This document shows, piece after piece, positions 7,192 through 53,529 of a stretch of 64,000 nt of DNA. A model generated the notes under the pieces. The model was not told the DNA's origin and made no database searches. It was given only the letters and a program-made list of their open reading frames with translations. A program made the translations under genes and the position numbers. The stretch's first letter is position 1; every line of letters begins with the position of its first letter. Location of the stretch: NCBI GenBank assembly GCA_963693305.1, contig OY855916.1:11228001-11292000 (forward strand), written 5' to 3'. This DNA comes from Meandrina meandrites. Lineage: Eukaryota > Cnidaria > Anthozoa > Scleractinia > Meandrinidae.

Positions 7192-7364
7192 TTATGAAAC
7201 AGTGAGAAGAAAACGAATTTGTGGTCAGGAAGTCAATTGTTTTTCACTCAGGAAGGTAGGGATTATCTATCACATGAACTAAACAAGCTTGATTATTGGC
7301 GTGACTCTGGCAGTTTGACTTGTATTACATTGTTTTTTTTACCGCCGCGAGTGTATTCCTGCAG

Positions 7365-8207
7365 AAGAGTGTCGAGTTCATTACTGACTCTGTGGGCGAT
7401 TCCATCGCGTTACCATTCAAAGGCATACAAATGGCAAGAGTGGGACAGCAGCCTCGGGGAAGAAAAGATAACCGTATGTATTTGCAAGAGATTTCTGTTG
7501 AACAGCAGATAGGGAGGTCAACTGAGAGCATTCCTCGTCTATTTGGTAACTTGTTCGAGAAGTGCTCTTCTGTTGACCAAAACGCAGGAAATTTTCGGAG
7601 AACCAGGTCTTTTACCCTGCCAAGAGTCTTAAAGAAAGAAAAGGACATGCCAAGTGTCGTCAGGATTGTGTTTGGAGCAAAAACGCGTCACAAGCAGAAT
7701 AACCCAAAATGCGACAGCTTACTAACAAACAACAGCCAGGACAAAGGATTGAACCAGAATGCCAACTGCACCAAGTTTATTAGTAAACAAAACTCCACGA
7801 GGGCTAATGATTTATCAGTAAGGCAACACAACTTCATTATTCCCAAAATATGCATTCAAACGCCCGAAGAGGTAAACAAAGAATCACACTTTACATATCC
7901 AATCACAATACGGCTACAGCAGGACTCGACACAAGATTTGATCCATGACCAGCCCAATAGCAAGGAATGGCTCGATAATCCAAAACAGCCTGCAACCGTG
8001 CCCTGTGAAACGGCGACTCCAGATAAGATCGAAAGCAGAATAGCTGCAGCTGCACGCAGGAAAAGAAGTTTCTCGTGGAGCGATGTTTATAGTAGTGAGG
8101 TTTTAAAGATTAGCACTGCAGAGGTATTAAAGGGCAGCAGTTCGTGGTGTGCCTTTCTAGACTCAGCCGCAGCACGAGAAACTGACCTGTGTTCAACCGA
8201 CTTGTAA
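7365..8207 (+). CDS. Unrecognised Ser/Arg-rich protein with C-terminal PDZ ligand (paralogue 1)
   Basis: The open frame runs from a candidate splice acceptor (TTCCTGCAG ending 7364) to TAA at 8205-8207. The first in-frame ATG is 7431 (258 codons), so the true start may be there or in an upstream exon. No enzymatic or membrane domain is visible, and the composition is low-complexity polar. Two basic-SF motifs occur (RRTRSFTL near the N-terminal third, RRKRSFSW near the end), consistent with basophilic-kinase or 14-3-3-type sites. The last nine residues are ETDLCSTDL; -T-D-L is a class I PDZ-binding ending. The same nine residues but one close the opposite-strand gene at 13583, so the two are paralogues and convergent. 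Probable intracellular scaffold or adaptor; this is inference. Confidence 0.6.
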   Translation, partial: KSVEFITDSVGDSIALPFKGIQMARVGQQPRGRKDNRMYLQEISVEQQIGRSTESIPRLFGNLFEKCSSVDQNAGNFRRTRSFTLPRVLKKEKDMPSVVRIVFGAKTRHKQNNPKCDSLLTNNSQDKGLNQNANCTKFISKQNSTRANDLSVRQHNFIIPKICIQTPEEVNKESHFTYPITIRLQQDSTQDLIHDQPNSKEWLDNPKQPATVPCETATPDKIESRIAAAARRKRSFSWSDVYSSEVLKISTAEVLKGSSSWCAFLDSAAARETDLCSTDL

Positions 8208-27457: not shown

Positions 27458-28647
27458 ATGGCGCTTACCTTTCAGACCCTCTTTGTTGCTTTGGGTCTCG
27501 TTGCATGCAGTGATGCTGCTGGTATCGGGAGTGTATTTGAGCTTTCAAGAATTAGCAAAAACTTCGGGATGATGAAAGTGACTACCAGAGGCCTGGGAGG
27601 GTCTGCCGAGATAGCTGGTTACTCCTTTGGTTTTGTTGGAGCATATTGGCGCTCAAACACAGCAAGAGAGCTAACAAGAATCACGTAGTGAGGACAGAGC
27701 ACGATGGAATCGAGATGACCCTGGATCAACTTCCCTCGAAAATCAGTGACGCACCCATCATTGATGCAGATGGAAATACAGAATACTTTTTTGACCCTAC
27801 TGTGGATCGAAACCAACGCAACTGTCTGAAAGTAAATGTTGGCATTTATCCACCTCACCCTCGTCGAAGAAAGTTTGTTTTTAAGACAATGAACGCTACA
27901 GATTCCAAGGGCGCGCTGATCTTGTCTACCGACTTAATAAACAAGTGCATGCAGAAGGAAAAAGTGTCCGTTTTACTTCTTCGCAGCTTTGACCTTGATC
28001 AACCTTTCTGGAATCTGAAGTTCTTTGTACCAAGAGACAAAATGTACCCACAATGTCCCGGACGAGACTTCGAGCTCCCCATCGAGAAGAATTTTGTTAG
28101 AGTTATGGAACAACAGAATGATGGAAACGATCGCTTGGTGGCCGACCTTTATCGCGACAAACGTATTCAAGTCGATGTGAGCGCAGAGTTAGCGAAGCTA
28201 GACAACCGGCAGAGCTATTATTTTGACAAAACATTCGAAGGACAGCTCGGTGTTTCTCAGGATGTGTTGCTGAAGCCTCCTGCAGCTGAGGATCCGCCAT
28301 CGACCTTAAAATACCAATTTGACATCAAGGGTGGTCAACAGTGGGATCCGGACGCGTTAATTTTCACCGAGGAACTGAGGAATTGGCTAAAGGATAAAGG
28401 ACGCAAGATCTTGTTGAAAAAGAAACCTAAAGGGGCCTGGAAACTGGAAATTATCAAAGACGACGGGTCAGCTACACATTCTTTGAGTCTGAAGAACATC
28501 GAACGCATCGATTATGAACCAAGGGATGGGTCCCTTAGGCAGCCTATTGTCCTCGACTTAGCCACAGAGACTAAGAAAAGAATTGACTTGGAAACCACCA
28601 CTGTTCATGAGCTGCTTATATCACAGAATGATTATTGCGCGGATTGA
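27458..28647 (+). pseudogene. Internally deleted, frameshifted paralogue of the 48.9-51.8 kb gene
   Basis: Starts ATG 27458 after an acceptor-like AG. The first frame (76 codons) opens with a signal peptide (MALTFQTLFVALGLVACS) and reaches AYWRSNT, a sequence also near the N-terminus of the large minus-strand protein. Homology then jumps directly to that protein's C-terminal third (NHVVRTE onward), losing about 610 residues including the hydrophobic stretch and RTX-like repeats. The join is out of frame: the first frame meets TAG at 27686-27688, while the homologous C-terminal frame runs 27646-28647 without its own early ATG. I see no intron that fixes it. Either a deletion pseudogene or a gene for a short secreted peptide. 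Confidence 0.75.
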
Positions 28648-30519: not shown

Positions 30520-30701
30520 ATATTCTAAGACGTTTCGACTCAAAAACTCGAGTCTTCATCCGTTGAAAAATGACGTGTGATTGCAAAACATGCATCATTG
30601 AAGTCCGACAATCATGCAGATATGCTACAGGTGTGAAGATACAGCAAATCAACCAAGTGAGGCGTAAATATTGGGAAGTTCTATGTGGTCGCTCTTGCGT
30701 T
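30520..30701 (-). mobile_element. Penelope-like remnant, 3' part (interrupted by the 5.1 kb element)
   Basis: Read on the minus strand it continues the GIY-YIG endonuclease tail that stops at 35833 on the other side of the 5.1 kb element. It ends with a hammerhead-like segment (30533-30562: CGGATGA, unpaired A, GACTC/GAGTC stem, GAAACGTC). The first box has U4 changed to G. The coding part contains stops, so it is a dead copy. Confidence 0.6.
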
Positions 30702-31189
30702 AGTAGTATAAGAAGGGTGATTCAACGCCATGTGGTGGTGGTGGAGGTGACGTCACAATAGCCGGAAGGGTCGGGAGGTATGACGTCACAATACCCCTGG
30801 GGTTGACATCATCAAAAATGATGACATCATCATCTAAAAATAGTATACGCCCCCACAATTACCGGTTTGGGTGGTGGAATCTCGTCATAGTTCTAAAAAT
30901 AGAAAAATGGAAACGAGAAATTCGAGATTTCCTTTATTGTGAAATTGTTAACTTATTTTTTTTTCAGTGATTTTAACATAGATAAGAAAAAAAATCTCTC
31001 AAATGACACGCGCGCGCTTTCATCTCGCGAGCCCACGCACTATCTCCACGCGTGATTCCACACGTGCTTCCAGAGAGAAACACACAAGCGGATAGGTGCC
31101 CCTATTGCCCCTATTGCCCGTTATGCCCTATAAATTTAGCGAAGGAAACAGATTTCATCAGTTTTTTATCCAACTTTTGTATCGTAAAC

Positions 31190-31363
31190 ATGAAGAGACT
31201 TCACTGCAGACATTGTCCAATACCTACTTGCGGTTCAAAATTTTTAGTTCGACTCGCGAATCATTTAAGTCAAGTTCATGGCTTATCAGAGATAGAACGA
31301 AAATATTGGCTCCAATCGATAACATGTGTTTATTGCACTTTGATTATGGATAATAAAGTTTAG
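31190..31363 (+). CDS. Small zinc-finger protein (left TIR copy), 57 aa
   Basis: The first ATG in good context (AAACATGA) is 31190. An open upstream extension to 31052 exists but only from a GTG. The protein begins MKRLHCRHC and contains C-x4-C-x10-H-x4-H, the same C-x10-H-x4-H spacing as the N-terminal finger of the ATPase in this element. A second Cys pair (CVYC) lies near the end. The AATAAA polyadenylation signal overlaps the last codons (AAT AAA GTT TAG), a compact virus-like arrangement. A possible DNA-binding regulator or TIR-binding factor; this is inference. Confidence 0.55.
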   Translation: MKRLHCRHCPIPTCGSKFLVRLANHLSQVHGLSEIERKYWLQSITCVYCTLIMDNKV

Positions 31364-31459
31364 TTCTGTAATTATGCAAGCTTTTTGTCGCATACATTTT
31401 CTACTGCAGACATAATTGTTTTCTAAACAATGGTATAGGCTCGATGTGTTCTAGTGAAC

Positions 31460-31660
31460 TCAATTATAAACAAAAGGATGACCAATCGAACTAATCCTTT
31501 CACAAACGAAAGATAAAACAATAGCGTGTATGCGCTTCAGTGGCCGAGTTTTAAGCACGAATTGCCGCGTAAGTAACATTAATACTAAACACACACATAG
31601 TATATCAAGCAAAACCTTTATTTTTGGACTTTGAAATGCAATTTTGGATTCCGGCTGCAT
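31460..31660 (-). other. Open frame in left TIR, 66 codons, doubtful
   Basis: ATG-started frame with one hydrophobic stretch (LLDILCVCLVLMLL) and mirrored at 34873-35073. It lies in the internally duplicated part of the TIR, and the homologous duplicate does not keep the frame open, so I think it is probably not a gene. Confidence 0.25.
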
Positions 31661-31916
31661 ACTATTAAGTGTCTAGTCGCTTCTTTTCACGACAATTAAA
31701 CAATAGACCTACCATCGAAACGAATTATTATTCACAAACGAAAACTATATATGCGCTTCATTGACCCTGAACGTAAACATTGCAAGTGCGAAGCGAATTG
31801 CCGCGAATAATAAACACACACAGATTATAACTCAAGCAAAAATTTTTATTTCATCAAAAACACAATTGCAACCTTACAAGACAAAAGTCAGCAGTTTCAT
31901 ATAGCGAAAAACACGT

Positions 31917-32192
31917 TTAACTGTTCCCAACTTTATTTTCTTTCTCGCTGGCTCTAGTTTCTTCAAGAAATGATTTCACACTTGGTTCGTCTTCACATAT
32001 GTAAATCCACCGTGTTCTACCATTAGAATAATGTCTTATTTTGACGGGCCAATAATTGTCGTATCCATACATGACTGTAGGAATATAGAGATTATAGGGA
32101 TTCCGTGCACTTGTATACATTTCAGCGACGCCAAAACCTTCTGGCAGATGTTTGCAATAGGGTGCTCCTTGTAAAAGATTTTGCAAAGCCGG
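31917..32192 (-). CDS. In-frame downstream extension of the ATPase (91 codons after a TGA)
   Basis: This frame is continuous with the packaging ATPase: it starts directly after the ATPase TGA (32193-32195) and has no ATG before the MYTSARNP region (~codon 25). It is rich in Tyr/Trp (MYGYDNYW, RWIYICEDE) and ends in the TIR with NKV...stop, where AAT AAA GTT again overlaps a polyadenylation signal (TTTATT on the plus strand, 31932-31937). It may be a C-terminal domain reached by TGA readthrough, a separate small protein, or an ORF split by a recent nonsense mutation. It does not resemble a domain I know. Confidence 0.45.
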   Translation of the reverse strand, partial: PALQNLLQGAPYCKHLPEGFGVAEMYTSARNPYNLYIPTVMYGYDNYWPVKIRHYSNGRTRWIYICEDEPSVKSFLEETRASEKENKVGNS

Positions 32193-33293
32193 TCAAGCGA
32201 TTTCGGACCAAACGAGATCAAACGGTTTCGGCTTCGAAGGTTGACCTGGACATTTTGTTGTTGTACTTGAGGTGACTGCCTTGGTATTCTTTACAGGATT
32301 AATCGTTTCTACTGTTTCCTCTGGTTTCAAGGATTTGTTGATACTTGGGTAAACTCGACAACAGCCAAAGATATCGCTCAACACCTGTTTGTTCCCTGCC
32401 GTGTCCGGTTTATTATCGACAAAGATGTATCCGTACGGTCTCTCCGTTTCCTGATAATAAGCTGTCATGAATCGTTGGCGATTCTTATCAAACATACGTT
32501 CAGCAACCATGCCGATTTGTTTTCGATCGCTAGGACTTCGGAAAAGAGCCACGTACTGTGCGTTCCGACTGATATCTGTGTTGAATTTTCCTTTCGGGAA
32601 CATATTTTGAAGTATCAGTATCACACTCGCGTTTCGATGTCGACCTTGAGTAAACAGCCGGGAAACGATCGGGCTTTCGATTGCCTGCGCCATAAGATCA
32701 TCAAAAATGATAACGTTGTTGCATTTTGGGTCAATTTCTCGTAGATCGTCTTGAAAGTTGGGAAGCCCACGATAAAAGTGAATATCCTTTCCAATCGCAG
32801 ATTTCATACCCTGGTATCGTTCTTGCCACTGGCTATAGTACCATAAAATGCGCTGCGGTTTCTTTGCCTCGTAGAAAATACGATTCTTTGTTAGAATCTG
32901 TTCTACGAAAGCTGTTTTCCCTGATTGACTTGGTCCAACCACAAGAAGTAAAAATTTATGGCGAAACATAAAATCTGGATAAGGCTCGGTTTCCAAGGAA
33001 ACGCCATGGGAAAGCTTCACCCTCTTGCCAGTAGAGGCGATTTTTGCGTTTTCCTTTACTGGATGTGCTCTTTTTCTTGGTTCAATTGTTTCTTTTGGGA
33101 AATTAGAAGAACAGCGAGGTAACACGCTGGTAGAAATATACTCTTTCTTTGATTCCCAAGAAATTCTGGCCTCTTTTAAGAGTTGTGTTCTCCTTAGCCC
33201 GATTGTATTATGGGCAATTTCAAGATGAGAACTCAAGTTGGACACACCTGGCTTCTCGCACAACGGGCAAATTCGGGGAAACCTTCTCGGCAT
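32193..33293 (-). CDS. P-loop genome-packaging-type ATPase (A32/FtsK-HerA-like) with N-terminal zinc finger
   Basis: ATG 33293 (G at -3) opens 366 codons. Residues 9-28 form a C-x2-C-x10-H-x4-H finger. A basic linker follows, then the ATPase: Walker A GPSQSGKT (120-127), Walker B VIIFDD (194-199), the TQGRHRNASV segment (215-223) and the sensor-type QN (229-230) followed by RNAQYVALFRSP. This order is typical of the DNA-packaging ATPases of Polintons, adintoviruses, adenovirus IVa2 and pox A32. It would pump element DNA into capsids supplied in trans, or the fold may have been re-used for transposition. The gene converges on the left TIR. The same frame stays open for 91 codons after the stop. 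Confidence 0.75.
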   Translation of the reverse strand: MPRRFPRICPLCEKPGVSNLSSHLEIAHNTIGLRRTQLLKEARISWESKKEYISTSVLPRCSSNFPKETIEPRKRAHPVKENAKIASTGKRVKLSHGVSLETEPYPDFMFRHKFLLLVVGPSQSGKTAFVEQILTKNRIFYEAKKPQRILWYYSQWQERYQGMKSAIGKDIHFYRGLPNFQDDLREIDPKCNNVIIFDDLMAQAIESPIVSRLFTQGRHRNASVILILQNMFPKGKFNTDISRNAQYVALFRSPSDRKQIGMVAERMFDKNRQRFMTAYYQETERPYGYIFVDNKPDTAGNKQVLSDIFGCCRVYPSINKSLKPEETVETINPVKNTKAVTSSTTTKCPGQPSKPKPFDLVWSEIA

Positions 33294-33382
33294 GACGGCT
33301 TGTGTCAAATGATGATGAGCTTAACAGAATCATTTAGTATATAGTTATGTACAATGGTGGGGAGTACATAGGAGAATTCAGG

Positions 33383-33684
33383 GGTACAGTAGGGGTACAG
33401 GAGGGGTACAGGAAGGGTACAGTAGGGGTACAGGAAGGGTACAGGAGGGGTACAGGAAGGGTACAGGAGGGGTACAGGAAAGGTACAGGAGGGGTACAGG
33501 AGGGGTACAGGAGGGGTACAAGAAGGGTACAGGAGGGGTACAGGAAGGGTACAGGAAGGGTAAAGTAGGGGTACAGGAGGGGTACAGTAGGGGTACAGGA
33601 AGGGTACAGGAGGGGTACAGGAAGGGTGCAGGAAGGGTACAGGAAGGGTACAGGAGGGGTACAGTAGGGGTTAGGGTTAGGGTG
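33383..33684 (+). repeat. Minisatellite, 10-11-bp unit, with telomere-like end
   Basis: Around 28 imperfect copies of a GGGGTACAGGA-type unit alternate AGG and AGT variants. They end with GGGGTTAGGGTTAGGG at 33667-33684, which is the animal telomere repeat. It lies between the divergently transcribed ATPase and acidic-protein genes, so in the intergenic promoter region. Open frames here on both strands are repeat artefacts. Confidence 0.9.
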
Positions 33685-33805
33685 CAATGAGAGTTCATAG
33701 AGTTCCGTTGTGCTCTGCAGCCGCGCCTCCATCGATAGCTACAAAAGAAGTGCACTGCTGCTTGTATTTCAGTCTGTTCATAGAGCTCGAGAAGTTCGGA
33801 TCACA

Positions 33806-34318
33806 ATGTTCAGCAATTATAATCATTTCGTTCAAAAAGGATATGGAAATTTTGAAGATGATGACGACGACATTGAAAGCTCACAAGAAAGCGAAAGTGA
33901 ACAGTCATCTCAAAGCTCTACACCTAGCGAAGAAATGGAATCATCCCAAGAGGAAGAGGAGCATATAGACCCTTGGTCACGCATTCAAGATGAAGCAAGT
34001 GATCGCCATGAAGCCCAGCTCGAAGCTCTAATAAAGGAGTATGAACAAAATGGAGATTCGTCTGAAGTGGCCCGCATTAAGGCTGAGAACGCTTTGCTCC
34101 CTGTATATAGAAAGGAGTTGAGAATAGTATTCTTGGAGTATTTAAAATGGATGCATGCGATGAAAAAGGATTCTACGTTCCGTAAAGTGATGCAAACAAG
34201 ACAGGATCTCAAAGACTCGGAAGGATATGATTGGCTGGAATCGACGGAACTTGCTGTCGATAAGCGGAAATTCCTACTCAATCGATTGTTTGTCAAACAA
34301 CCCGTTCCCGAAAACTAA
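33806..34318 (+). CDS. Acidic coiled-coil-like protein of the 5.1 kb element, 170 aa
   Basis: First ATG at 33806 (the open frame starts earlier, at a GTG). Residues ~15-55 are a Ser/Glu/Asp-rich acidic tract. Residues ~60-170 look helical and charged, with LEALIKEYEQ and RKELRIVFLEYLKWMHAM heptad-like patterns. AATAAA follows at 34374, 56 bases after the stop. I do not recognise the family. Position opposite the ATPase suggests a virion-associated, scaffold or accessory protein; this is only inference. Confidence 0.6.
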   Translation: MFSNYNHFVQKGYGNFEDDDDDIESSQESESEQSSQSSTPSEEMESSQEEEEHIDPWSRIQDEASDRHEAQLEALIKEYEQNGDSSEVARIKAENALLPVYRKELRIVFLEYLKWMHAMKKDSTFRKVMQTRQDLKDSEGYDWLESTELAVDKRKFLLNRLFVKQPVPEN

Positions 34319-34373
34319 GCGAACCCTGTCTGTGCACTGTTCTTCTAACACATTTAATCGTGGCTTTGTTGTC

Positions 34374-34379
34374 AATAAA
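34374..34379 (+). terminator. Polyadenylation signal of the acidic-protein gene
   Basis: AATAAA in the unique region just inside the right TIR. Confidence 0.7.
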
Positions 34380-34560
34380 CCTATTTGAAAAGAGATCAGC
34401 TGTTGATGTCTTTCTCTACCATAAAATTTTACTAGAAACATGACTGTATAACAACACTAGTGTAGCACTTTTCTTCCATTACTCATGTCCAGACCAGAGT
34501 TGTAATAACTCTAAGGTTAGAGCGAGTAAGTTTGAATTTATTATATGGTTGGAATATTTA
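34380..34560. other. Unique non-coding stretch inside the element
   Basis: No ORF or repeat found between the acidic gene and the right TIR. Confidence 0.4.
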
Positions 34561-35832
34561 CATTTCTTGAAGAAACTAGAGCCAGCGAGAAAGAAAATAA
34601 AGTTGGGAACAGTTAAACGTGTTTTTCGCTATATGAAACTGCTGACTTTTGTCTTGTAAGGTTGCAATTGTGTTTTTGATGAAATAAAAATTTTTGCTTG
34701 AGTTATAATCTGTGTGTGTTTATTATTCGCGGCAATTCGCTTCGCACTTGCAATGTTTACGTTCAGGGTCAATGAAGCGCATATATAGTTTTCGTTTGTG
34801 AATAATAATTCGTTTCGATGGTAGGTCTATTGTTTAATTGTCGTGAAAAGAAGCGACTAGACACTTAATAGTATGCAGCCGGAATCCAAAATTGCATTTC
34901 AAAGTCCAAAAATAAAGGTTTTGCTTGATATACTATGTGTGTGTTTAGTATTAATGTTACTTACGCGGCAATTCGTGCTTAAAACTCGGCCACTGAAGCG
35001 CATACACGCTATTGTTTTATCTTTCGTTTGTGAAAGGATTAGTTCGATTGGTCATCCTTTTGTTTATAATTGAGTTCACTAGAACACATCGAGCCTATAC
35101 CATTGTTTAGAAAACAATTATGTCTGCAGTAGAAAATGTATGCGACAAAAAGCTTGCATAATTACAGAACTAAACTTTATTATCCATAATCAAAGTGCAA
35201 TAAACACATGTTATCGATTGGAGCCAATATTTTCGTTCTATCTCTGATAAGCCATGAACTTGACTTAAATGATTCGCGAGTCGAACTAAAAATTTTGAAC
35301 CGCAAGTAGGTATTGGACAATGTCTGCAGTGAAGTCTCTTCATGTTTACGATACAAAAGTTGGATAAAAAACTGATGAAATCTGTTTCCTTCGCTAAATT
35401 TATAGGGCATAACGGGCAATAGGGGCAATAGGGGCACCTATCCGCTTGTGTGTTTCTCTCTGGAAGCACGTGTGGAATCACGCGTGGAGATAGTGCGTGG
35501 GCTCGCGAGATGAAAGCGCGCGCGTGTCATTTGAGAGATTTTTTTTTCTTATCTATGTTAAAATCACTGAAAAAAAAATAAGTTAACAATTTCACGATAA
35601 AGGAAATCTCGAATTTCTCGTTTCCATTTTTCTATTTTTAGAACTATGACGAGATTCCACCACCCAAACCGGTAATTGTGGGGGCGTATACTATTTTTAG
35701 ATGATAATGTCATCATTTTTGATGATGTCAACCCCAGGGGTATTGTGACGTCATACCTCCCGACCCTTCCGGCTATTGTGACGTCACCTCCACCACCACC
35801 ACATGGCGTTGAATCACCCTTCTTATACTACT
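34561..35832 (-). repeat. Right terminal inverted repeat (1272 bp)
   Basis: Mirror of 30702-31972, carrying the second copy of the zinc-finger gene. The near identity argues for recent insertion or for gene conversion between the arms. Confidence 0.95.
35170..35343 (-). CDS. Small zinc-finger protein (right TIR copy), 57 aa
   Basis: Same amino-acid sequence as the left TIR copy, reading inwards from the right end. Two copies per element follow from the long TIRs. The upstream 280 bases (rich in CACC and GACGTCA words) would be its promoter region. Confidence 0.55.
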   Translation of the reverse strand: MKRLHCRHCPIPTCGSKFLVRLANHLSQVHGLSEIERKYWLQSITCVYCTLIMDNKV

Positions 35833-36060
35833 TGCGTTCCTGTCTCTGAGGCAGTACCACGCTTCTAAGAACAGTCTTTTTATGGTACTTTTTAGCTTTG
35901 TTGACGATCTCTATGTTTTTTAAATTCATGTTATGATCATGTTGGTACGCATGCTGCGCGATCTTTGAATTGCTATTAAAGGTTCGAGCTCCTCGTTCTT
36001 ATGGGAAATCGCAGTTTTTGCGATGTATCTTGCATATGACATCTCTGGTTAAGTTGTTTC
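35833..36060 (-). mobile_element. Penelope-like remnant, GIY-YIG endonuclease part
   Basis: On the minus strand it encodes fragments of the Penelope C-terminal endonuclease (LTRDVICKIHRKNCDF, later KNIEIVNKAKKYHKK) with stops and frameshifts. It ends at AACGCA, the target duplication of the 5.1 kb element, and resumes at 30701. The host element was already dead or has decayed since. Confidence 0.7.
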
Positions 36061-36430
36061 GTATATTACATCCCTGGTTTCATTACCATATACAAGATAC
36101 ACTGCAAAACCTGTGATTTCGTCTATTATGGACAAACCGGAAGGCTGTCAGTACGAGAGTTACCGAGCACAAACGAGCATTCGAACCTTTGATCGCAATT
36201 CAAAGGTCGCGCAGCGTGTGTACTAAAAAGATCATAACACGGACTTAAAGAAAACATCGACATCGTCAACAAAGCTAGAAATTACCATAAAAGACTGTTC
36301 TTAGAAGCGTTATACTGCCTCAGAGACCCGAACGCAGGGAACGACCACGTAGAAATTCCCATTTCCCTTCTACCTCGCTACGGTCGTGCGAACTCTGAAG
36401 CATTAACACACGCTACAAAAATATAAAGGC
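36061..36430 (+). mobile_element. Penelope-like remnant, second copy in opposite orientation
   Basis: The plus strand reads YKIHCKTCDFVYYGQTGRL, a GIY-YIG core motif, then decayed coding sequence ending with CLRDPNAGNDHVEIPIS. Head-to-head with the minus copy at 35833-36060, forming an inverted dimer with the centre near 36060. Confidence 0.75.
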
Positions 36431-38270: not shown

Positions 38271-39623
38271 TCAGTCTTCATTCAGCCTTGCGATCTTCGA
38301 TTGATCTCCGCAGAAAACGTTGATGTTGAATGAGCAGCTTTCAAACTTATCAATATGCGCCCCAGCAAAAATTGCCTGAGGCTGAATTCGCTGGACTGTC
38401 AAAACATTTTGCTGAGTGGACATGGAAGCACTGACTTGTTTTCCTTCGGGCTGAGCGGATGAACTTGGGCCACGATTTAGCACAGCAGACATTTCTCGCT
38501 TGCGCTTCAGAGATGCTGAATGGTAGCTGTCAAGGCTTTTCAAATTTTTGTGACCGCTGAGTTGTGCTACGAAATTGGGCTGAACTTCTGCTTCCAAAAG
38601 TCTTCCAACACTGGTCTTCCTAACGGAGTGGTGGAAACCTTCTTCTTGTTTTTATCACCGAGTTTGGCTGCATCGAAGGCGTCTTTTAGGAACTTGCCAA
38701 TTTCGTTTTTTCCGAGTGGCCTATCCAGATACCACACTTTCTCTTCTGGTTTTCGGCGGTAATTTATTGCGAGATAAAACGGAGCGTCTGGTTCCAGCAT
38801 GGCTTCGGAACGGTGGCTTCGAAAAGCATTGTAAAATTCAACTGGGCATCTTGACTTGTCACTGCTTGAGTACGATTTCGGTTCAAATGCCTTTTGATGT
38901 CCACCATCTTGCCCGGTGCGTGTTTTGCTCCCTCTCTCAGACTTCCAGACGAGAAACTCAGAATCCGTTTCTGGATCTCTTGCCAAGCCTACATCTCCCC
39001 AACACAGCTTCCTGCTTTCATCACTAGCCCTCCAGCCAAAATGTAGGGAAAGAAACCACCACAAAGCTCTTTGCAAGGGTTTAGGATCTTGAACACCGAA
39101 CTGGCCCGTTGCAAACAAATTATCTTCGTCGGCTTCAGTGAGTTCTCTTGCTGCATTTGGACAGTTTCCTTTTCCATTATGAACCAAGTTCTTCCGTTTG
39201 CCTGCAAGCACCTCTCTGCATGGACTTGGCGAATTCATTATCCTTGAGAATATTAAGCATACTTCTTTTTTCATGCAAGTGTCGTTGAAAACTTCGCTGG
39301 AAACCGCTCAATGTAGCCGGCTCGTACTCGCTACCATCTTGTTTACGAACGGAGATGAAGAATTTTGACAGCAGGAGGTCCAGCTCACTAGCAGGTATGT
39401 TTTCTATCTGTCTTGCCTCTTTCATAGACACGCAAAATTTTCTCCAGGCGTTCAGGTCACTTCTTGTTTTATACTCTGTGTTTTTTGACTTCTGATCCTT
39501 CAAAAACTTTTCAATCATGATCTCGTCCTCGTCTATTTTGACCGCCTCTGCCGTGCTACAATTTGCTCGAGGTTGTTCATTCTCTTTAAATTCTGTCTCG
39601 GTAAAACCTTCTGGCTCTTCCAT
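38271..39623 (-). pseudogene. Crypton-type tyrosine recombinase (KIAA1958/DUF3504-like), two frameshifts
   Basis: ATG 39623 opens a 148-codon frame with the N-terminal SAM-like segment (LNAWRKFC, GFQRSFQRHLHEK). At ~39200 homology moves to another frame, which encodes the catalytic-domain start (ALWWFLSLHFGWRASDESRK, WGDVGL; the first Arg is in the conserved place). At ~38620-38640 a second shift is needed to reach HSVRKT and then SGHKNLKSLDSYHSAS, which carry the His-x-x-Arg and the nucleophile-region Tyr. All catalytic blocks are therefore present but in three frames, so this copy is dead. Cryptons cut and rejoin DNA without TIRs. A domesticated host relative is less likely given the breaks. 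Confidence 0.8.
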
Positions 39624-40240: not shown

Positions 40241-43200
40241 TAAAGAATGATAAATTTATTGGAGGAGGCATTCTTTCGTATCTTTTAAGGTTTGTTATTT
40301 TCTATTTTGTATTTGAGTAAGATTTTATTTAGTACGAAATCCCTAATGATGATTGGTGTATCGTGTAGTTTACAGTTATATATGTAGTATCGCATGAATA
40401 GCATTGTATAATTAAATTTCTCTGCTAACTCTGTATTGTGTGAACACTTAGTGAGGCCAAAGAGTTTTTCTTCGATAGATGGATTGAGATGTGAATTATT
40501 TGTTACATTAAACCATTTGACAACCTCAGTTTCGAAGGAATTAACGAAATGGCAATGTTGGAATGAATGGTCAATGGAATCTTTTTCACCACAGTATAGG
40601 CAGTCGTCATCCGGTTTGATACCAGAGCGAAATAGCTCCTTTTTAGTAACCACAATACGGTGGTTTCTTTACATAGATTTTTGAGGGAGGCGAATGCTTT
40701 TTTCCAGGAGTCTTCATTCATGGACAAACTTACATTCCATCTTCTAAGGCCGGTCTGTTCAACTGTGTGGGTCTTCACATTTAATAGTTTGGAGAAGTCG
40801 CAAGTTTTGGCCTTATTTAAATCTAGTTGTGTGGATTTATCTAATTGGATGATACCGTTCTCAGCGGAATATGACTCTTTCTTAACTGGATCACTGGTTT
40901 TTGCTTTGTTTAATAAATTCTTCGGGATAGTACTTATGACCAGATAGTATTGGAGAAAGTTCAATCTACACGCGTATCTCGCTTTGAATTCCGGATATGA
41001 CAAGATATGGCCAGTGTCGTCGAGAGGGTCTTGAATAGATATGATGCCCTTATCAAGCCATTCTCTAAAAAAAAAACGGTTTTGCCTTCCACAAGTATCT
41101 CCTTGTTATTGAATAGAATTAAATCCTGCGTTTGATCAAAACTGTAGAGGCTCTTCAATTCGTTAAAATATGAGAGAATACTTTGGAAAAACGAGGGCAA
41201 AAAATTAAGGTGCGTTGGATCGTAGTTACATTTTAATAAGAAATTAAGACCTCCTAATTTGCGTAAATAATAATCTGGAACTGCCGTCTTTTGGAGTCTT
41301 GGAATCCATGCTAGCTTAAGAGCCTTAAGCATGATCTCTATATCTATCATGCGTAATCCGCCTTTGTCTATGCGCCTATGTCCTGATATAGTCCTGATCT
41401 TTTAATTTTGTCTCTTTTGTTTTTCCAGAGAAAGTTAAATAGTTTCGTTTTCACTAAACGTGCGAAACCTTCAGGTATGTCGAGAATCGAGGATGAATAA
41501 ATTATCAGTGACAGACCAAGCGATTTTATTATCAACACTCTACCAAACAATGTAAGATCTCTCGCTCTCCGCATATCAAGATTTGTCTGTAACTTTCCCA
41601 ATTTGAGATTGAAATTCCGGTCGTCATTTCTTTTTACCTAGGAGACATATGTACCTAAAATTCTAACCGGAGTACGAGGCCATTTTAGCTGTAAAGGATT
41701 AAGTTTGTTTTTTCCCACTTTTCAAGCCAGATCCCTTTGCACTTTTTTTATATTTAGCTTTAAACCAGCGAGTATTCCAAAGTCTCCAACTGTTCTTAAT
41801 GCATTTTCAGCCGAGATCGTGTCCGCACAAAGCAGGTTAGTATCATCGTGCGAATTGACTCAGTTTAATTTCATTTCCAAATATTTTGATGCCTTCTATA
41901 GTTGGGTCTTGTCGGATCTTATTCGACAATAGTTCTGCTGATAAAACAAATTAGAATGGCCGGATAGTGGGTATCCTTGTCGTACACCTCTGGAAGGAGT
42001 AAACCAGTTCGTAATGAATCCATTATTTATTGCTGTACTCTCAATATTTGTGTAGAAAGTTCTTATCCACCTTTTGATGCTAGATCCGAAGTTAAAGGTG
42101 TCTAAAGTCTTCATCATAAATGACCATTCAAGCGAATCGAAAGCTTTCTGGAAATCCAGCGAAATTAAGATACCGGGTATATTTTGCGACTTTGTGTGTT
42201 CCATGATGTCAATGATTAATCTGATATTTTGGCCTATATATCTACCCTTAATGAAGCCTGATTGATCAGTGTTCACCAGATTTGGAAGCAACGGTTCTAT
42301 TCGTTTGGCAATGACCTTAGCTGCTACCTTACAGTCTACGTTGAGTAGTGTTATTGGACGCCAGTTTGATAATTCTAGTAGCAAGCCATCCTCCTTTGGA
42401 ATTAAGGTGATGACTCCTCTACGTTGAGAAATGGTTAGTTCATTTGCATCATATGCAGCATTGAAGCTGGCGACCATGTCCTCTCCCAATAGTTCGATAA
42501 AAAACTTACGGTGAATCCATCTTCCACTGGAGTTTTATTCGCCTGGAAGATATCTAATACAGTCTTAAATTAAACTTAGAGTTATTGGTCCTTCGATACT
42601 ATCTCTCTCCTCATTCGTGAGTTTAGGTATTTCCACAGTTCAATGAAGTCATTAATATCATTGTCATGTGTGTTGTTTACAGAAGTATATAATTTTTTAT
42701 AATAATTTTCAATAGCTTCTAGAATCAGGTCTTTATTGTATGTTGTCGAGTCATCATCCAATCGGAGTTCCGTAATGGTTTTTTTATTGTGATTCTTTTT
42801 TTCAAGGTTGAAGAAGTATTTAGTAGGACGTTCTCCATTTTCGACCCATCTACATTAGATCTGAATATAGCCGCTCTACCTTTCTCGTCGTAGATAGATT
42901 GTAACTCCGTTTTAAGCTTTTCGTACTCTTTCAAGACATGGTTCATATTTGGAGAGTTAAAATTGTCGCAAATAAAGCTGTCTAGTTGCTCTAATCGTTC
43001 CTTGATTTGCAGTTTCCTTGTGTTTGTCATTTTAGCTTTGCTTTTACTAAACGAAATTGTTGCCGCCCTCATTTCCATTTTCAACATCTCCCAGAGAAAA
43101 CGCTTGTCTTCTAAATCGGAATAAAAAGCACGTGTACGCGAATAAGTTTCACGGATTTTTAATTACGTAATCGGGATCATTAAGTAGGGTGTTATTAAAT

Positions 43201-48916: not shown

Positions 48917-51812
48917 TCAGTCCATGCAATCATCTGTCTTTGGTGTAAGCATTTCATAAACAGTGAAGGTTTCCAGGTCGATTCTTTTCTTCGTCTCCGT
49001 GGCTAAGTCGAAGACAATAGGCTGCCTGAGAGACCCATCCCTTGGTTCGTAATCGATGCGTTCGATGTTCTTTAGGCTCAAAGAATGTGTAGTTGTGCCA
49101 TCGTCTTTGGTGATTTCCAGTTTCCAGGCCCCTTCGATTCCGTTTTTCAACACAATCCTACGTCGGTTAGGTTTCAACCAGTTTCTTAGTTCGTCAGTGA
49201 AAATCAATGCGTCTGGATCCCAGTGCTGACCACCCTTGATGTCAAATTGGTATTTCAAGGTCGATGCCGGATTCATAGTAACAGGCGGCTTCAGCAACAC
49301 TTCCTGGGAAACTCCGAGCTGTCCTTCGAATATTTTGTCAAAGTGGTAGCTCTGCCGTTTGTTTAGCTTTGCCAGCTCTGTATTCACATCAATTTGAATA
49401 CGTTTGTCACGATAAAGGTCGGCCAGCAAGCGAACTTTTCCATCATTGCGTTGTTCCAAAACTCTTGCAAATTGCTTATCGATAGGGAGCTGGATATTAT
49501 TTCCGAGACATTCTGGATGATTTTGGTCTCGGGGTACAAAGAACTTCAGATTCCAGGTAGGACGTTCAGGGTCAAAGCTGCGAAGAAGTACAACGGAAAC
49601 ATTTGCCTTCTGCATGCATCTGTCTATAAAGTCGGTGGACAAGATCAGCGCGCCCTTGGAATCTGTAGCATCGATGGTTTTGAAAACGAACTTGTTTTGG
49701 TGAGGCTGAGGTGGATAAACGCCCACATTCACTTTCAGACAGCTTTGGTTTCGTTCCACAGTAGGGTCAAGAAAGTACTGTGTTTTTCCACTTGAATCAA
49801 TAATGGCTGCGTCACTGGTTTTCACTGGAAGTTGATCCAGGGTCATTTCGATTCCGTCCTGCTCTGTTCTCACCACGTGATTACCGTTACTTTTTTGGCT
49901 AAAAACAATGTGTGCGCGGAAGTGATCTGCGCATCCCTGCCCATTATCTTCGTAAATGTACATTGTACGTTCCTGTTTCGAAAACTTAAGACATCTGTTT
50001 GTTATTCGACGGTTGTTGCGGCTTTCGAGGATGATTTTGCCGGGTGTTTTAGATTGATCATCAATGGTGGTACGCGAGAATATGATAGGATGTAGGTACA
50101 TCTTATATATGTTGTGTCCCTTTGTTTGCCGAATAAAAAACATTCCACCCAACATGATTTCTACTATGTCGTTGTAAGGCGTACCCACGAACATCTTAAT
50201 CCCTTGAACGAAACCCCAGTAAACGCTCACTGGCGTTCCTCCATCATTAGCAACTCTATAGTACAAATTCCCATAAAAAATCTCGTACTCGACACCAAGA
50301 ATTTTTTGTTCGCGCTTTTGTACTTTTGGCATTCCTTCGAAAGAAAGGACGTCGTTATTTCTCCGAATTACCTTGTGCATCCCATAAGCTGAATAGATTG
50401 CAATAAATGCCTTTGCGTTCGGGTTTCCTGGTTGCTGAAAACCCGGCATTATTCTTGGTTTTCCTATCAAGCCATTTATTTCAATTACGTCATCTCCACC
50501 GCCAGTTTTAACATTAACGGTTGCAAGCGCCCACCTTGGCGAAATGTCGTACATATCGTCAATGACTACATTGTCTGATTTCTCATCTCTCTCGCTCTTG
50601 TAAGTTATAATGTCCAGTCCTTTAAGTTCCACACCAGGTTTTCCAGCCACCAAATTAGTGTTTGCTGTAACTGTAGCACCCTTAAATTGATCTGTTACTT
50701 TTTTACCATAGAAATCGTAACCAATGTCGACAAGTCCTTGAGGATTCCAAAACAGATTACTTGGATATTTAGATTTATCCAAATGTCTTTTAGGTCCAAC
50801 AACTAAATAACCATTTTCTTCTTTTGGTGGATTCTCCAATTTGAACTCAACCCTTTGGCTTAACGACGTCCATCTGCCTTGGATGTTTTCCACCAAAAGG
50901 CCTTGGTTAAGCTGATAAACCCATGAGAATTCAAAGTGGTCTCGTTGTGGAACAAGGTTGGGAAGATCCTTAATGTTTCGCTCCAACATCTTTTTTGATC
51001 TGTCTGTGAGGTCTTTAATCATCCTTACATCTTGTTCGATTTGTCTGTATGGATTCAAGGCTGTAAAGATTTCAACCATGATTGATGCCAGTCCAAGGAT
51101 AGCGCCAATCAGTGCTCCTACTGGTCCAGCAACCGCTGCCAACGTAGAACCTGTGGTAGCAAGTGCAGCGACAACAAATCCGGTAACCCCAGCAAGACCT
51201 GATGCAAGGGAAAGTGAACTTGAAGCGATTGCGGCTGGGTCTTTGTTCTTTATCGCCTCTGCAAGCTGCCACGCACTGACACCCACGGTTGCTGCATCAA
51301 ACAATGGTCCTGCAATTACATCGGCCCATTTGACGACCTTCACTGCTGTCTTGAGTCCCCTCAGATCCGTCACTAGATCTGTGTACATCTGGCTGTTTTG
51401 AAAAATTTTAGCGACATCCGTTTGGAATGCATTGCCAATACTCTTCTTCTTTTGTAAGAGCTTTCCCTTGAGAAAATCTGATTTTGCAGCTCTAGTGGTG
51501 CCGTCAAGGACTTCTGACTTCATAACATTGCGGTAATCACTGTACGCCTGTAAAGTGTTCCGAGACAGTTGTTTATTCTTGACTATCTTATCAACTAGCT
51601 TGTGTACCACTGGGTAAGCGACTCCCTGACCGAGATCCCACACTGTTAAAGTGGCAATAGCGAGTTGAATGGTCTCCATGGCTTCTTGGATCTCTCCCTG
51701 TGACATCTGAGCATATGCAGCCAGTGTGTTAGAGCGCCAGTAAGCGGAAAGAGAGGAAATTGGCCCCCATTTCGTGGCCAATTTAGCCCAATTTATATCC
51801 AAAACAAAAGTA
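48917..51812 (-). CDS. Large RTX-motif, membrane-insertion-like protein (~960 aa), main exon
   Basis: An uninterrupted minus-strand frame of ~961 codons ends at 48917. The 5' edge is probably a splice acceptor (CATTTAAAG, exon from 51812). No ATG before codon 33, so the signal-peptide exon lies upstream and was not found; the truncated copy at 27458 has one. Residues ~1-150 are helical. ~160-249 is a long Gly/Ala-rich hydrophobic stretch (ATTGSTLAAVAGPVGALIGA) resembling membrane-inserting hairpins of pore-forming proteins. TGGGDDVIEI (~433-442) and GTPYNDIVEI (~540-549) resemble RTX calcium-binding nonapeptides. The C-terminal ~320 residues are a conserved domain shared with the 27.5 kb copy. 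Possibly a secreted toxin- or defence-type protein; I do not know the family, and the role is inference. Confidence 0.7.
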
Positions 51813-53529
51813 CTTTAAATGACTAAATTAGCATCATCACGTCTAAAACGACATTCTGCGTAAGGGCTGTTTTGGGCTATAAGTATTTAAAATAGACCTA
51901 TTGCAAGGACTAAAATGGTTATTGGCATGCATAAAAATGGCCCCATTTCAGTCAATACACAAAACTGCCTTCATGTAAATTAAAAACCACAACAGGCAGT
52001 AATGACAGTATATTATACACAGGAGACACACATTTTGTGAACACGTAAAAATATTTTATTCTCCTATTAAGCTTAAAGCAGAAACACAAAATTCCTGGCA
52101 AATTCACCGTATGCCATACATGTCTTAATAAAAACTGCAATTTTATAAGTATACTGAATCACACATTTCTCTGATTTGGAATATACTGCATAACAAAAAA
52201 AAAACCTTCTCCAACGGCTGCATAAATATTGTCTGATTTTAGCCAACTCTGCCTACAGCCTCATCGGCTAAGTATCCGGCGATATTACGCATAATTTCGC
52301 AGGATAATTGTTAACTAGCTGTAGTGCAACAATGTGTTGAGGAATAAGGGCATTGCTGGTGTGCAGTTAATTTTTGGAAAAAGGCAAGCTAGCAAAAAAC
52401 AAAATGAGGTGCAATCATGAAGGCATATTACTGTTGATGCCATGGCATGCATAGCTAATAAAGCCCATACATGTATACATCTACATACAGCGGATTCAGG
52501 TTGAGCGTTTAACGGTCTCAGTTGTCGCATTCGTTGTCACGGTTGAATTGATTGCATTGCAAGGCAAAATGACAGACGTTGCTGGGCGGGAATGTCAACC
52601 TTCTGCCTGGGAAAACTACAACATGCTTTTTCCTGACAGAACATCGTCATTCCTCCTCTAGAGCAGCATCTGTCATTTTGCCTCGCAACGCAGTCAATTC
52701 AACCGTAATAATGAATGCGACAACTGAGGCTGTTAAGCCTCAACCTGAATCTGCTGTAAATCACACACAAAACAACACTAATCACCAAAAGGATCAGAAT
52801 GAAATTATTGCAGCAAACTTTCCAATTGAACTGGAAATTAAAAAAAGCCTACAGGTAAAAATTCAGGGCTTCAACAGGATTTGAAACTGTGACTTCTGCA
52901 ATTTACATTTGAACTATTTCATATACTTCACATCAGAATAAAAATTGTTGCCAAAAAGCTGTTATTGAGAACCTGTAGAAGTAGTTATAAATCAATTTGT
53001 GAACAATTTATTTATTTTAATAAACATTGTATAACAAAATTAGTTTTATTTTGTGCAAAATTAAACAGTTAGCTAAAGAAAAAATTAATAAAAATAAAAA
53101 ACCACCAGACAGAAAATGTTGCATGCAGATTGATATAAAGTGTAGGAAACAAAATATTGGTTTCTACTTACTGGGTACATTTGACCATCCAACTCTTTCA
53201 TCTGAAAATAACATACAAGCAATTACATCATTTTGAATGCCATTACCAAGTATTTCAATGTACAAAATTAATTAAAGAAAAAATACATGTAAAGTTAGAC
53301 AGAGAGAGTACAGTAATTATCACAAAAACAGGTTTTTGTCTAAGGCTATTTGACTATGTCCAGTAAATGCCATATTGAATGCATTTTTTTATATTTACAC
53401 ACATGTGCAAAGATTTTTTTTTTATTAAACACTTTGCTCTGTAAATTAAGCTGCACTGCATATTGATCAATTGATGCTGTAACAGTCATTTGCAAAATAC
53501 ATGTGCAGTTGTATATGTGGCTGTTACAC
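51813..53529. other. Upstream of the large gene; no gene supported
   Basis: AT-rich. I looked for the missing signal-peptide exon on the minus strand and found none. The main structure is the hairpin at 52486-52758. Confidence 0.45.
52486..52758. mobile_element. Inverted-repeat element with ~100-bp arms
   Basis: Left arm TACAGCGGATTCAGGTTGAG ... CAAGGCAAAATGACAGA is mirrored by TCTGTCATTTTGCCTCGCAA ... CTCAACCTGAATCTGCTGTA. A ~70-bp spacer carries CTTCTGCCTGGG. The open frame 52579-52884 reads through one arm and is not evidence of a gene. Confidence 0.85.

What the first reader, a model, noticed from the sequence alone, without database searches (positions are those of the whole stretch)
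30702..35832. Compact 5.1 kb packaging-ATPase element with Polinton-type ends
Seen directly: AG...CT termini, ~1271-bp near-identical TIRs, 6-bp duplication TGCGTT, and one ORF with Walker A GPSQSGKT and Walker B VIIFDD in the packaging-ATPase arrangement. Polintons are normally 15-20 kb with integrase, polymerase B, protease and capsid genes; here these are missing and only about 2.6 kb of unique sequence remains. This would be a minimal, perhaps satellite-like, relative that keeps the packaging motor and borrows integrase and capsid. I know of no named family with this set, but I cannot search.
Basis: partly seen in the sequence, partly recalled or inferred. Interest (0 to 1): 0.9.

Follow-up and report, generated by a model that had tools for sequence, protein, structure and literature searches.

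The report
Coral mini-Polinton keeping its packaging motor
A 5.1-kb mobile element, very likely from a coral genome, has the exact ends of the virus-like Polinton/Maverick elements but only three kinds of gene, a relative of viral DNA-packaging motors, an acidic protein and a predicted zinc finger, so it is likely a satellite that would borrow copying, integration and capsids from full-size Polintons.

Summary
Window 30702-35832 is a 5,131-bp element with 1,271/1,272-bp inverted repeats (two mismatches, one indel), (AGT)2//(ACT)2 ends and a TGCGTT duplication. A related host repeat arm about 0.5 kb away reads across the same point with one TGCGTT: an in-window picture of the empty site. The ATPase matches Pox_A32 and, by profile, ATPases of a lineage with a protein-primed-type polymerase beside it; it forms its own long-stemmed clade. 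It has 640 database relatives; the few organisms named are all anthozoans. Motor and tail are shuffled between relatives, so the family is mosaic. No polymerase, integrase, protease or capsid was detected. Best reading: a Polinton-ended, helper-dependent element family of corals and anemones, likely a packaging satellite. Whether full-size Polintons share its repeats could not be tested: the genome search did not complete (20 attempts). Helper use and packaging are inference. This copy's ATPase is truncated; intact relatives exist.

The parts
30696..30701 (.). left target-site duplication TGCGTT
30702..31972 (+). left terminal inverted repeat, 1,271 bp, starts (AGT)2
31190..31363 (+). 57-aa C2H2-like (predicted zinc-finger) ORF inside the left TIR, homologous to the N-terminal domain of the ATPase family
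   Evidence: BLASTP 59% over 37 aa to P0070/P0079, E 1e-13; domain profile E 7.9e-13 for the frame; no Pfam zinc-finger match
32193..33293 (-). zinc-finger-like domain + packaging-type ATPase ORF, ATG at 33293, ends at an in-frame stop 32193-32195
   Evidence: Pfam Pox_A32 E 1.4e-6; 98% identical relative P0001 that is not interrupted
31917..32192 (-). same-frame remainder of the ATPase gene (C-terminal tail); its last 56 bp lie inside the left TIR
   Evidence: hmmsearch with family profile E 5.5e-21
33380..33671 (+). 11-bp G-rich minisatellite, 26.5 copies, followed by two TTAGGG units (33671-33682), between the two divergent genes
33806..34318 (+). ORF2: 170-aa protein with acidic, Ser-rich N-terminus and predicted helices; no known family
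   Evidence: 457 relatives; no credible Pfam hit; low-confidence helical model of relative P0121
34561..35832 (-). right terminal inverted repeat, 1,272 bp, ends (ACT)2
35170..35343 (-). second copy of the 57-aa zinc-finger-like ORF, in the right TIR, identical translation
35833..35838 (.). right target-site duplication TGCGTT
36172..36361 (-). opposite arm of the host repeat into which the element inserted; an unoccupied paralogue of the insertion site

Best explanation
The element at 30702-35832 has Polinton/Maverick ends and encodes a relative of viral DNA-packaging ATPases, an acidic protein and predicted terminal-repeat zinc fingers, with no polymerase, integrase, protease or capsid gene detected, and it is likely a satellite that would be copied and integrated in trans by full-size Polintons and would use its own ATPase to load itself into their capsids. 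Shown: the ends, the 6-bp duplication and the empty-site paralogue, so it entered as a discrete unit; the ATPase homology; one C2H2-like domain fused to the ATPase and present as a stand-alone ORF in each TIR; hundreds of related ATPases and ORF2 proteins in public sequence data. Inferred: (1) a Polinton integrase acts on its ends, because ends and duplication length match the published Maverick pattern exactly; (2) a Polinton protein-primed polymerase copies it, because the TIRs are 99.8% alike and a short repeat at the tip suits that mechanism (recalled); (3) the zinc fingers bind the element's own ends and so give the motor preference for the short genome, comparable to phage satellites that redirect a helper's packaging (recalled); (4) ORF2 is an accessory of replication or packaging. 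This copy's ATPase is cut by an in-frame stop, so this copy, if mobile, would depend on sister copies too.
Against: No helper element, shared TIR, transcript or particle was seen. The genome search did not complete (20 attempts), so a larger element with the same TIR is not excluded. The ATPase of this copy is truncated. No Pfam zinc-finger model matched the ATPase N-terminus or the TIR ORF; 'zinc finger' rests on the Cys/His spacing and the homology between the two. 25 of 94 listed ATPases with more than 60 residues before Walker A lack that spacing by my simple pattern. The contig-length coincidences do not show adjacency. Coral-type ATPases sit on a very long stem (2.39 changes per site), so a changed function is possible. 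The ATPase model is low-confidence (pLDDT 64.9, pTM 0.43) and no Foldseek match reached E 0.001.
Confidence: 0.45

Rival explanations
1. It is an internal-deletion derivative of an ordinary anthozoan Polinton: full-size copies with the same TIR carry this ATPase, ORF2 and zinc-finger-like ORF together with polymerase, integrase and capsid, and the short form is passive baggage.
For: Ends, TSD, TIR length and the ATPase are all Polinton-type. The genome search that would separate this from the best explanation was unreachable (and 19 repeats). A coral Polinton with a protein-primed polymerase is on record (Stylophora, PMC11071308, passage).
Against: No remnant of another core gene was found by Pfam in the element's ORFs of 60 aa or more. 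The ATPase family is a separate long-stemmed clade with an N-terminal C2H2-like domain, which 0 of the 72 L001-type ATPases with a recognisable Walker A show. The stand-alone TIR domain matched to the ATPase looks like a coherent set rather than a remnant. All three are compatible with deletion from an unusual Polinton.
Confidence: 0.32
2. It is a non-autonomous Polinton-ended transposon whose ATPase no longer packages DNA but serves copying or integration (for instance loading proteins at the ends); no capsid stage exists.
For: Long stem of the ATPase clade; fused C2H2-like domain and novel C-terminal tail; no capsid gene detected.
Against: Walker A, Walker B and the LFTxGxxHRNxxxxxLxQN stretch shared with L001-type ATPases are kept.
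Confidence: 0.15
3. It is a dying family of genomic fossils, with neither motor nor helper active today.
For: In-frame stop in this copy; P0002, a 95% identical relative, ends at the corresponding residue.
Against: TIRs 99.8% alike point to a likely recent insertion; uninterrupted 98% identical relative P0001 with 16 member sequences.
Confidence: 0.08

Closest known systems
Polintons / Mavericks (Polintoviricetes)
   Same: (AGT)2//(ACT)2 ends, 6-bp TSD, TIR length within the 46-1,447 bp range given for vertebrate Mavericks, packaging-type ATPase
   Different: 5.1 kb instead of 12.7-24.6 kb; no polymerase, integrase, protease or capsid detected; ATPase carries a C2H2-like N-terminal domain; each TIR carries an ORF of that domain
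Adintoviruses and the L001-type groundwater element
   Same: homologous ATPase (37% over 189 aa)
   Different: L001 encodes a family B polymerase beside a 246-aa ATPase without the C2H2-like domain; coral-type ATPases form a separate clade
Polinton-like viruses and virophages
   Same: packaging ATPase; integrase-less PLVs proposed to use Polinton integrases in trans
   Different: they encode their own major and minor capsid proteins (PMC4642659 abstract passage)
Phage-inducible chromosomal islands and other packaging-redirecting phage satellites (recalled, from no call)
   Same: small size, borrowed capsids, own packaging specificity, as an analogy of working
   Different: unrelated genes and hosts; no helper shown here

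Membership tests
Polinton/Maverick | 6-bp target-site duplication | tested here: met
   TGCGTT both sides, single copy at the unoccupied paralogue
Polinton/Maverick | terminal motif (AGT)2//(ACT)2 or (AG)3//(CT)3 | tested here: met
   AGTAGT...ACTACT against PMC8097293 section 7
Polinton/Maverick | terminal inverted repeats of tens to about 1,400 bp | tested here: met
   1,271/1,272 bp; range
Polinton/Maverick | packaging ATPase | tested here: met
   Pox_A32 above cut-off, profile match; interrupted in this copy
[quoted passage not shown]
   no Pfam match in the element's ORFs of 60 aa or more; L001's polymerase alone is 1,224 aa, the whole unique part here 2,588 bp
Polinton/Maverick | retrovirus-type integrase | tested here: not met
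   same scans
Polinton/Maverick | major and minor capsid proteins, Ulp1/adenain protease | tested here: not met
   same scans; a very diverged minor protein cannot be excluded for ORF2, whose fold is unresolved
Polinton/Maverick | size 12.7-24.6 kb (intact vertebrate elements) | tested here: not met
   5,131 bp
Polinton satellite | depends on a helper that shares its ends | not tested
   genome search unreachable (and 19 repeats)
Polinton satellite | packaged into helper particles | not testable with these tools
   needs particle DNA
Adintovirus | polymerase plus reciprocally recognisable hexon (definition in PMC11071296, passage) | tested here: not met
   no polymerase or capsid ORF detected
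Viral packaging ATPases (A32/FtsK-HerA) | Walker A and B, sequence match to packaging ATPases | tested here: met
Viral packaging ATPases (A32/FtsK-HerA) | fold of solved packaging ATPases | tested here: inconclusive
C2H2 zinc fingers | match to a zinc-finger family model | tested here: inconclusive
   Cys/His spacing present in both the TIR ORF and the ATPase N-terminus, homologous to each other, but no Pfam zinc-finger model matched

The most novel reading that the evidence does not exclude
Corals and anemones carry a large, old family of animal packaging satellites: 5-kb Polinton parasites that dropped everything but the motor, and made the motor selfish by fusing it to a zinc finger that also sits, as a separate gene, in their terminal repeats, so that helper capsids are filled with the satellite's short genome instead of the Polinton's.
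Probability: 0.33. Interest if true: 0.92.

Novelty: new variant of a known kind. Interest (0 to 1): 0.66.

Why it matters
Polintons have capsid genes, but, as the abstract of PMC8097293 says of Mavericks, their particles have not been observed (listing). An element without detectable polymerase, integrase or capsid, from a family whose packaging-type motor keeps its Walker motifs, would be indirect evidence that Polinton packaging happens in living animals, and would make it testable: look for 5-kb linear DNA in particles from corals. It would also be a packaging-redirecting satellite of an animal DNA virus lineage, comparable to phage satellites, with a candidate specificity module (zinc finger plus terminal repeat). 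If instead full-size copies share the repeat, the result is still a large ATPase clade of anthozoan Polintons for which my searches found no description.

Tried and rejected
Host domestication of the ATPase: rejected for this locus because the gene lies inside a TIR/TSD-bounded unit. ORF2 as a known protein: no credible Pfam match (best single-member value 0.0012, to unrelated families scattered over the 22 members), PHROGs or viral-fold match (none at E 0.001). Whole-model Foldseek of the ATPase against PDB: no match at E 0.001, best rows unrelated P-loop proteins; the VIA second look lists packaging NTPase B204 but tied with SRP GTPases. PDB by sequence profile: best E 0.16. Zinc finger by Pfam: no match. 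Relatives of ATPase or ORF2 in IMG/VR: none in 4 scans; the 22-base TIR tip: none; L001-type ATPase: one weak hit, L002, in a 267-kb contig, none with A3. Phage records: none. GTDB genomes: one, L001. Other copies of the element in the window: none. Rfam: none at gathering cut-offs. A2 profile hit at window 7296-7409 (E 0.005) judged chance. Literature: 10 searches, of which I saw the listings (titles and abstract beginnings) and passages of six papers and one section in full; none showed an ATPase-only or non-autonomous Polinton. Two of the searches were swamped by coral papers and tell little. Six spelled-out phrases for non-autonomous or miniature Polintons returned 0 papers. Most subscription journals are outside that library, and Repbase was not searched, so absence from print is not shown.
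Full report
WHAT IS THERE. The element is real and its limits are exact: 30702-35832, 5,131 bp, TIRs of 1,271 and 1,272 bp with two mismatches and one indel, 2,588 bp between them. It starts AGTAGT and ends ACTACT and is flanked by TGCGTT. The flanks belong to a host inverted repeat whose other arm (36172-36361, minus strand) is 85% identical to the two flanks joined, over 155 bp, with a single TGCGTT at the junction. This is an unoccupied paralogue inside the window, independent of any database, and shows that the unit entered at that point and duplicated six bases.

GENES. Two genes run outward from a central minisatellite (33380-33671, 26.5 copies of 11 bp, then two TTAGGG units). Leftward is the ATPase (ATG 33293). 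Its frame is interrupted at 32193-32195; the same frame continues to 31917, and that remainder matches the family profile on its own (E 5.5e-21). The last 56 bp lie inside the TIR. Intact relatives exist: P0001 is 98% identical, 458 aa, and continues past this point. Rightward is ORF2 (33806-34318), 170 aa, with an acidic serine-rich first third; the model of its relative P0121 is helical in the remainder (mean pLDDT 58.6). No Pfam, PHROGs or viral-fold match is credible. Each TIR holds an inward 57-aa ORF with C2H2-like spacing. It is homologous to the N-terminal domain of the ATPases: 59% identity over 37 aa to P0070 and P0079 (E 1e-13), matches to 87 of 120 listed ATPases (75 of them over 30 or more residues) and to 0 of 120 listed ORF2 proteins at E 0.01, and a profile from 75 of the 120 ATPases finds both TIR frames at E 7.9e-13. 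The element thus carries three copies of one module, one of them fused to the motor. That it is a zinc finger is my reading of the spacing: no Pfam zinc-finger model matched.

FAMILY. The ATPase search gave 640 proteins at E 0.001 or better of 1,495 candidates, and ORF2 457 of 504; 120 of each were listed and studied. An organism is named for only a few: 3 of 120 ATPases (Porites lobata, Exaiptasia diaphana, Actinostola) and 6 of 120 ORF2 proteins (Porites lobata three times, Porites evermanni, Oculina patagonica twice), all anthozoans. That the window's host is an anthozoan, probably a stony coral, is inferred from this. Clusters at 90% identity hold up to 174 (ATPase) and 785 (ORF2) member sequences; 25 of 120 and 16 of 120 clusters have 20 or more; redundancy between assemblies may inflate this. 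Three ATPase/ORF2 pairs have the same longest-contig length, two of them under 0.5 Mb, which fits a common element but does not show adjacency. Walker A is intact in 110 and Walker B in 111 of 120; of 94 with more than 60 residues before Walker A, 69 have a C2H2-like motif by a simple pattern and 25 do not.

MOSAICISM. P0005 and P0010 differ in the motor (151/200 residues shared) but share the tail (89/92); the longest contigs of their clusters are 200 kb and 959 kb, so this is unlikely to be an assembly artefact. P0003 and P0005 are almost identical in N-terminal domain, linker and motor (40/40, 67/68, 202/205) but differ in the tail (43/92); here P0003's longest contig is only 1.8 kb, so this case is weaker. 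The tail gene segment abuts and enters the TIR in the window element. I infer that ends and tail may be exchanged together as a specificity module; this was not tested.

HOW IT LIKELY WORKS. Shown: discrete insertion with Maverick ends. PMC8097293 section 7 (that section read in full) gives (AGT)2//(ACT)2 as the commonest vertebrate Maverick end motif, element sizes of 12,723-24,620 bp and TIRs of 46-1,447 bp; passages give the 6-bp TSD. Inferred: integrase and polymerase in trans from resident Polintons. Such use of Polinton integrases was proposed for integrase-less PLVs (PMC4642659, passages). Inferred further: packaging into Polinton capsids with a motor made specific by its added domain. 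The strongest argument for a packaging role is that an element without other detectable Polinton core genes belongs to a family that keeps Walker motifs. The strongest counter-argument is that I could not look for full-size elements with the same TIR.

MEMBERSHIP. It meets the Polinton tests of ends, TSD, TIR and ATPase and fails those of polymerase, integrase, capsid, protease and size. I therefore do not file it as a Polinton but as a Polinton-ended, non-autonomous relative, and 'satellite' as a likely but untested way of working. A coral Polinton with a protein-primed polymerase is on record (Stylophora, PMC11071308, passages), so a helper is plausible in such hosts.

LIMITS. The genome search was unreachable in all 20 attempts, so copy number, TIR sharing, empty alleles and dN/dS in the host are open. 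The literature library excludes most subscription journals and Repbase was not searched; ten searches found no such element, which is not proof of novelty.

Three ORFs of 60 aa or more that overlap the element had not been scanned; they have no match above a Pfam cut-off (one, lying mostly in the flank, has a chance-level hit). The hit counts were recomputed and stand.

Noticed in passing
L001:1-7071: A 7.1-kb contig binned into a bacterial MAG encodes a family B (protein-primed-type) polymerase, a packaging-type ATPase and further unassigned ORFs: evidently a Polinton/adintovirus-like element in a bacterial bin; its ATPase has 363 relatives at E 0.001, the 120 listed all without an organism name.
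   Followed up: partly
window 35833-36361: Host inverted repeat (matching stretches of 167 and 192 bp at 84-85%) into which the element inserted.
   Followed up: partly
window 33380-33682: G-rich 11-bp minisatellite ending in two telomere-like TTAGGG units between the two divergent genes of the element.
   Followed up: no
window 38567-39307: DUF3504 ORF (Pfam E 3.5e-20), the domain of Crypton-type tyrosine recombinases (function recalled).
   Followed up: no
window 41896-42534: ORF that reads like a LINE-type reverse transcriptase (by eye).
   Followed up: no
window 27556-28647 and 48917-51814: Two ORFs sharing a similar C-terminal region by eye, the longer 965 aa with no Pfam match: perhaps a duplicated host gene of unknown kind.
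   Followed up: no
P0002: A 95% identical relative of the ATPase, in a cluster of 6 sequences, ends at the residue where the window ORF is interrupted, so the short form may itself be a multi-copy lineage.
   Followed up: no
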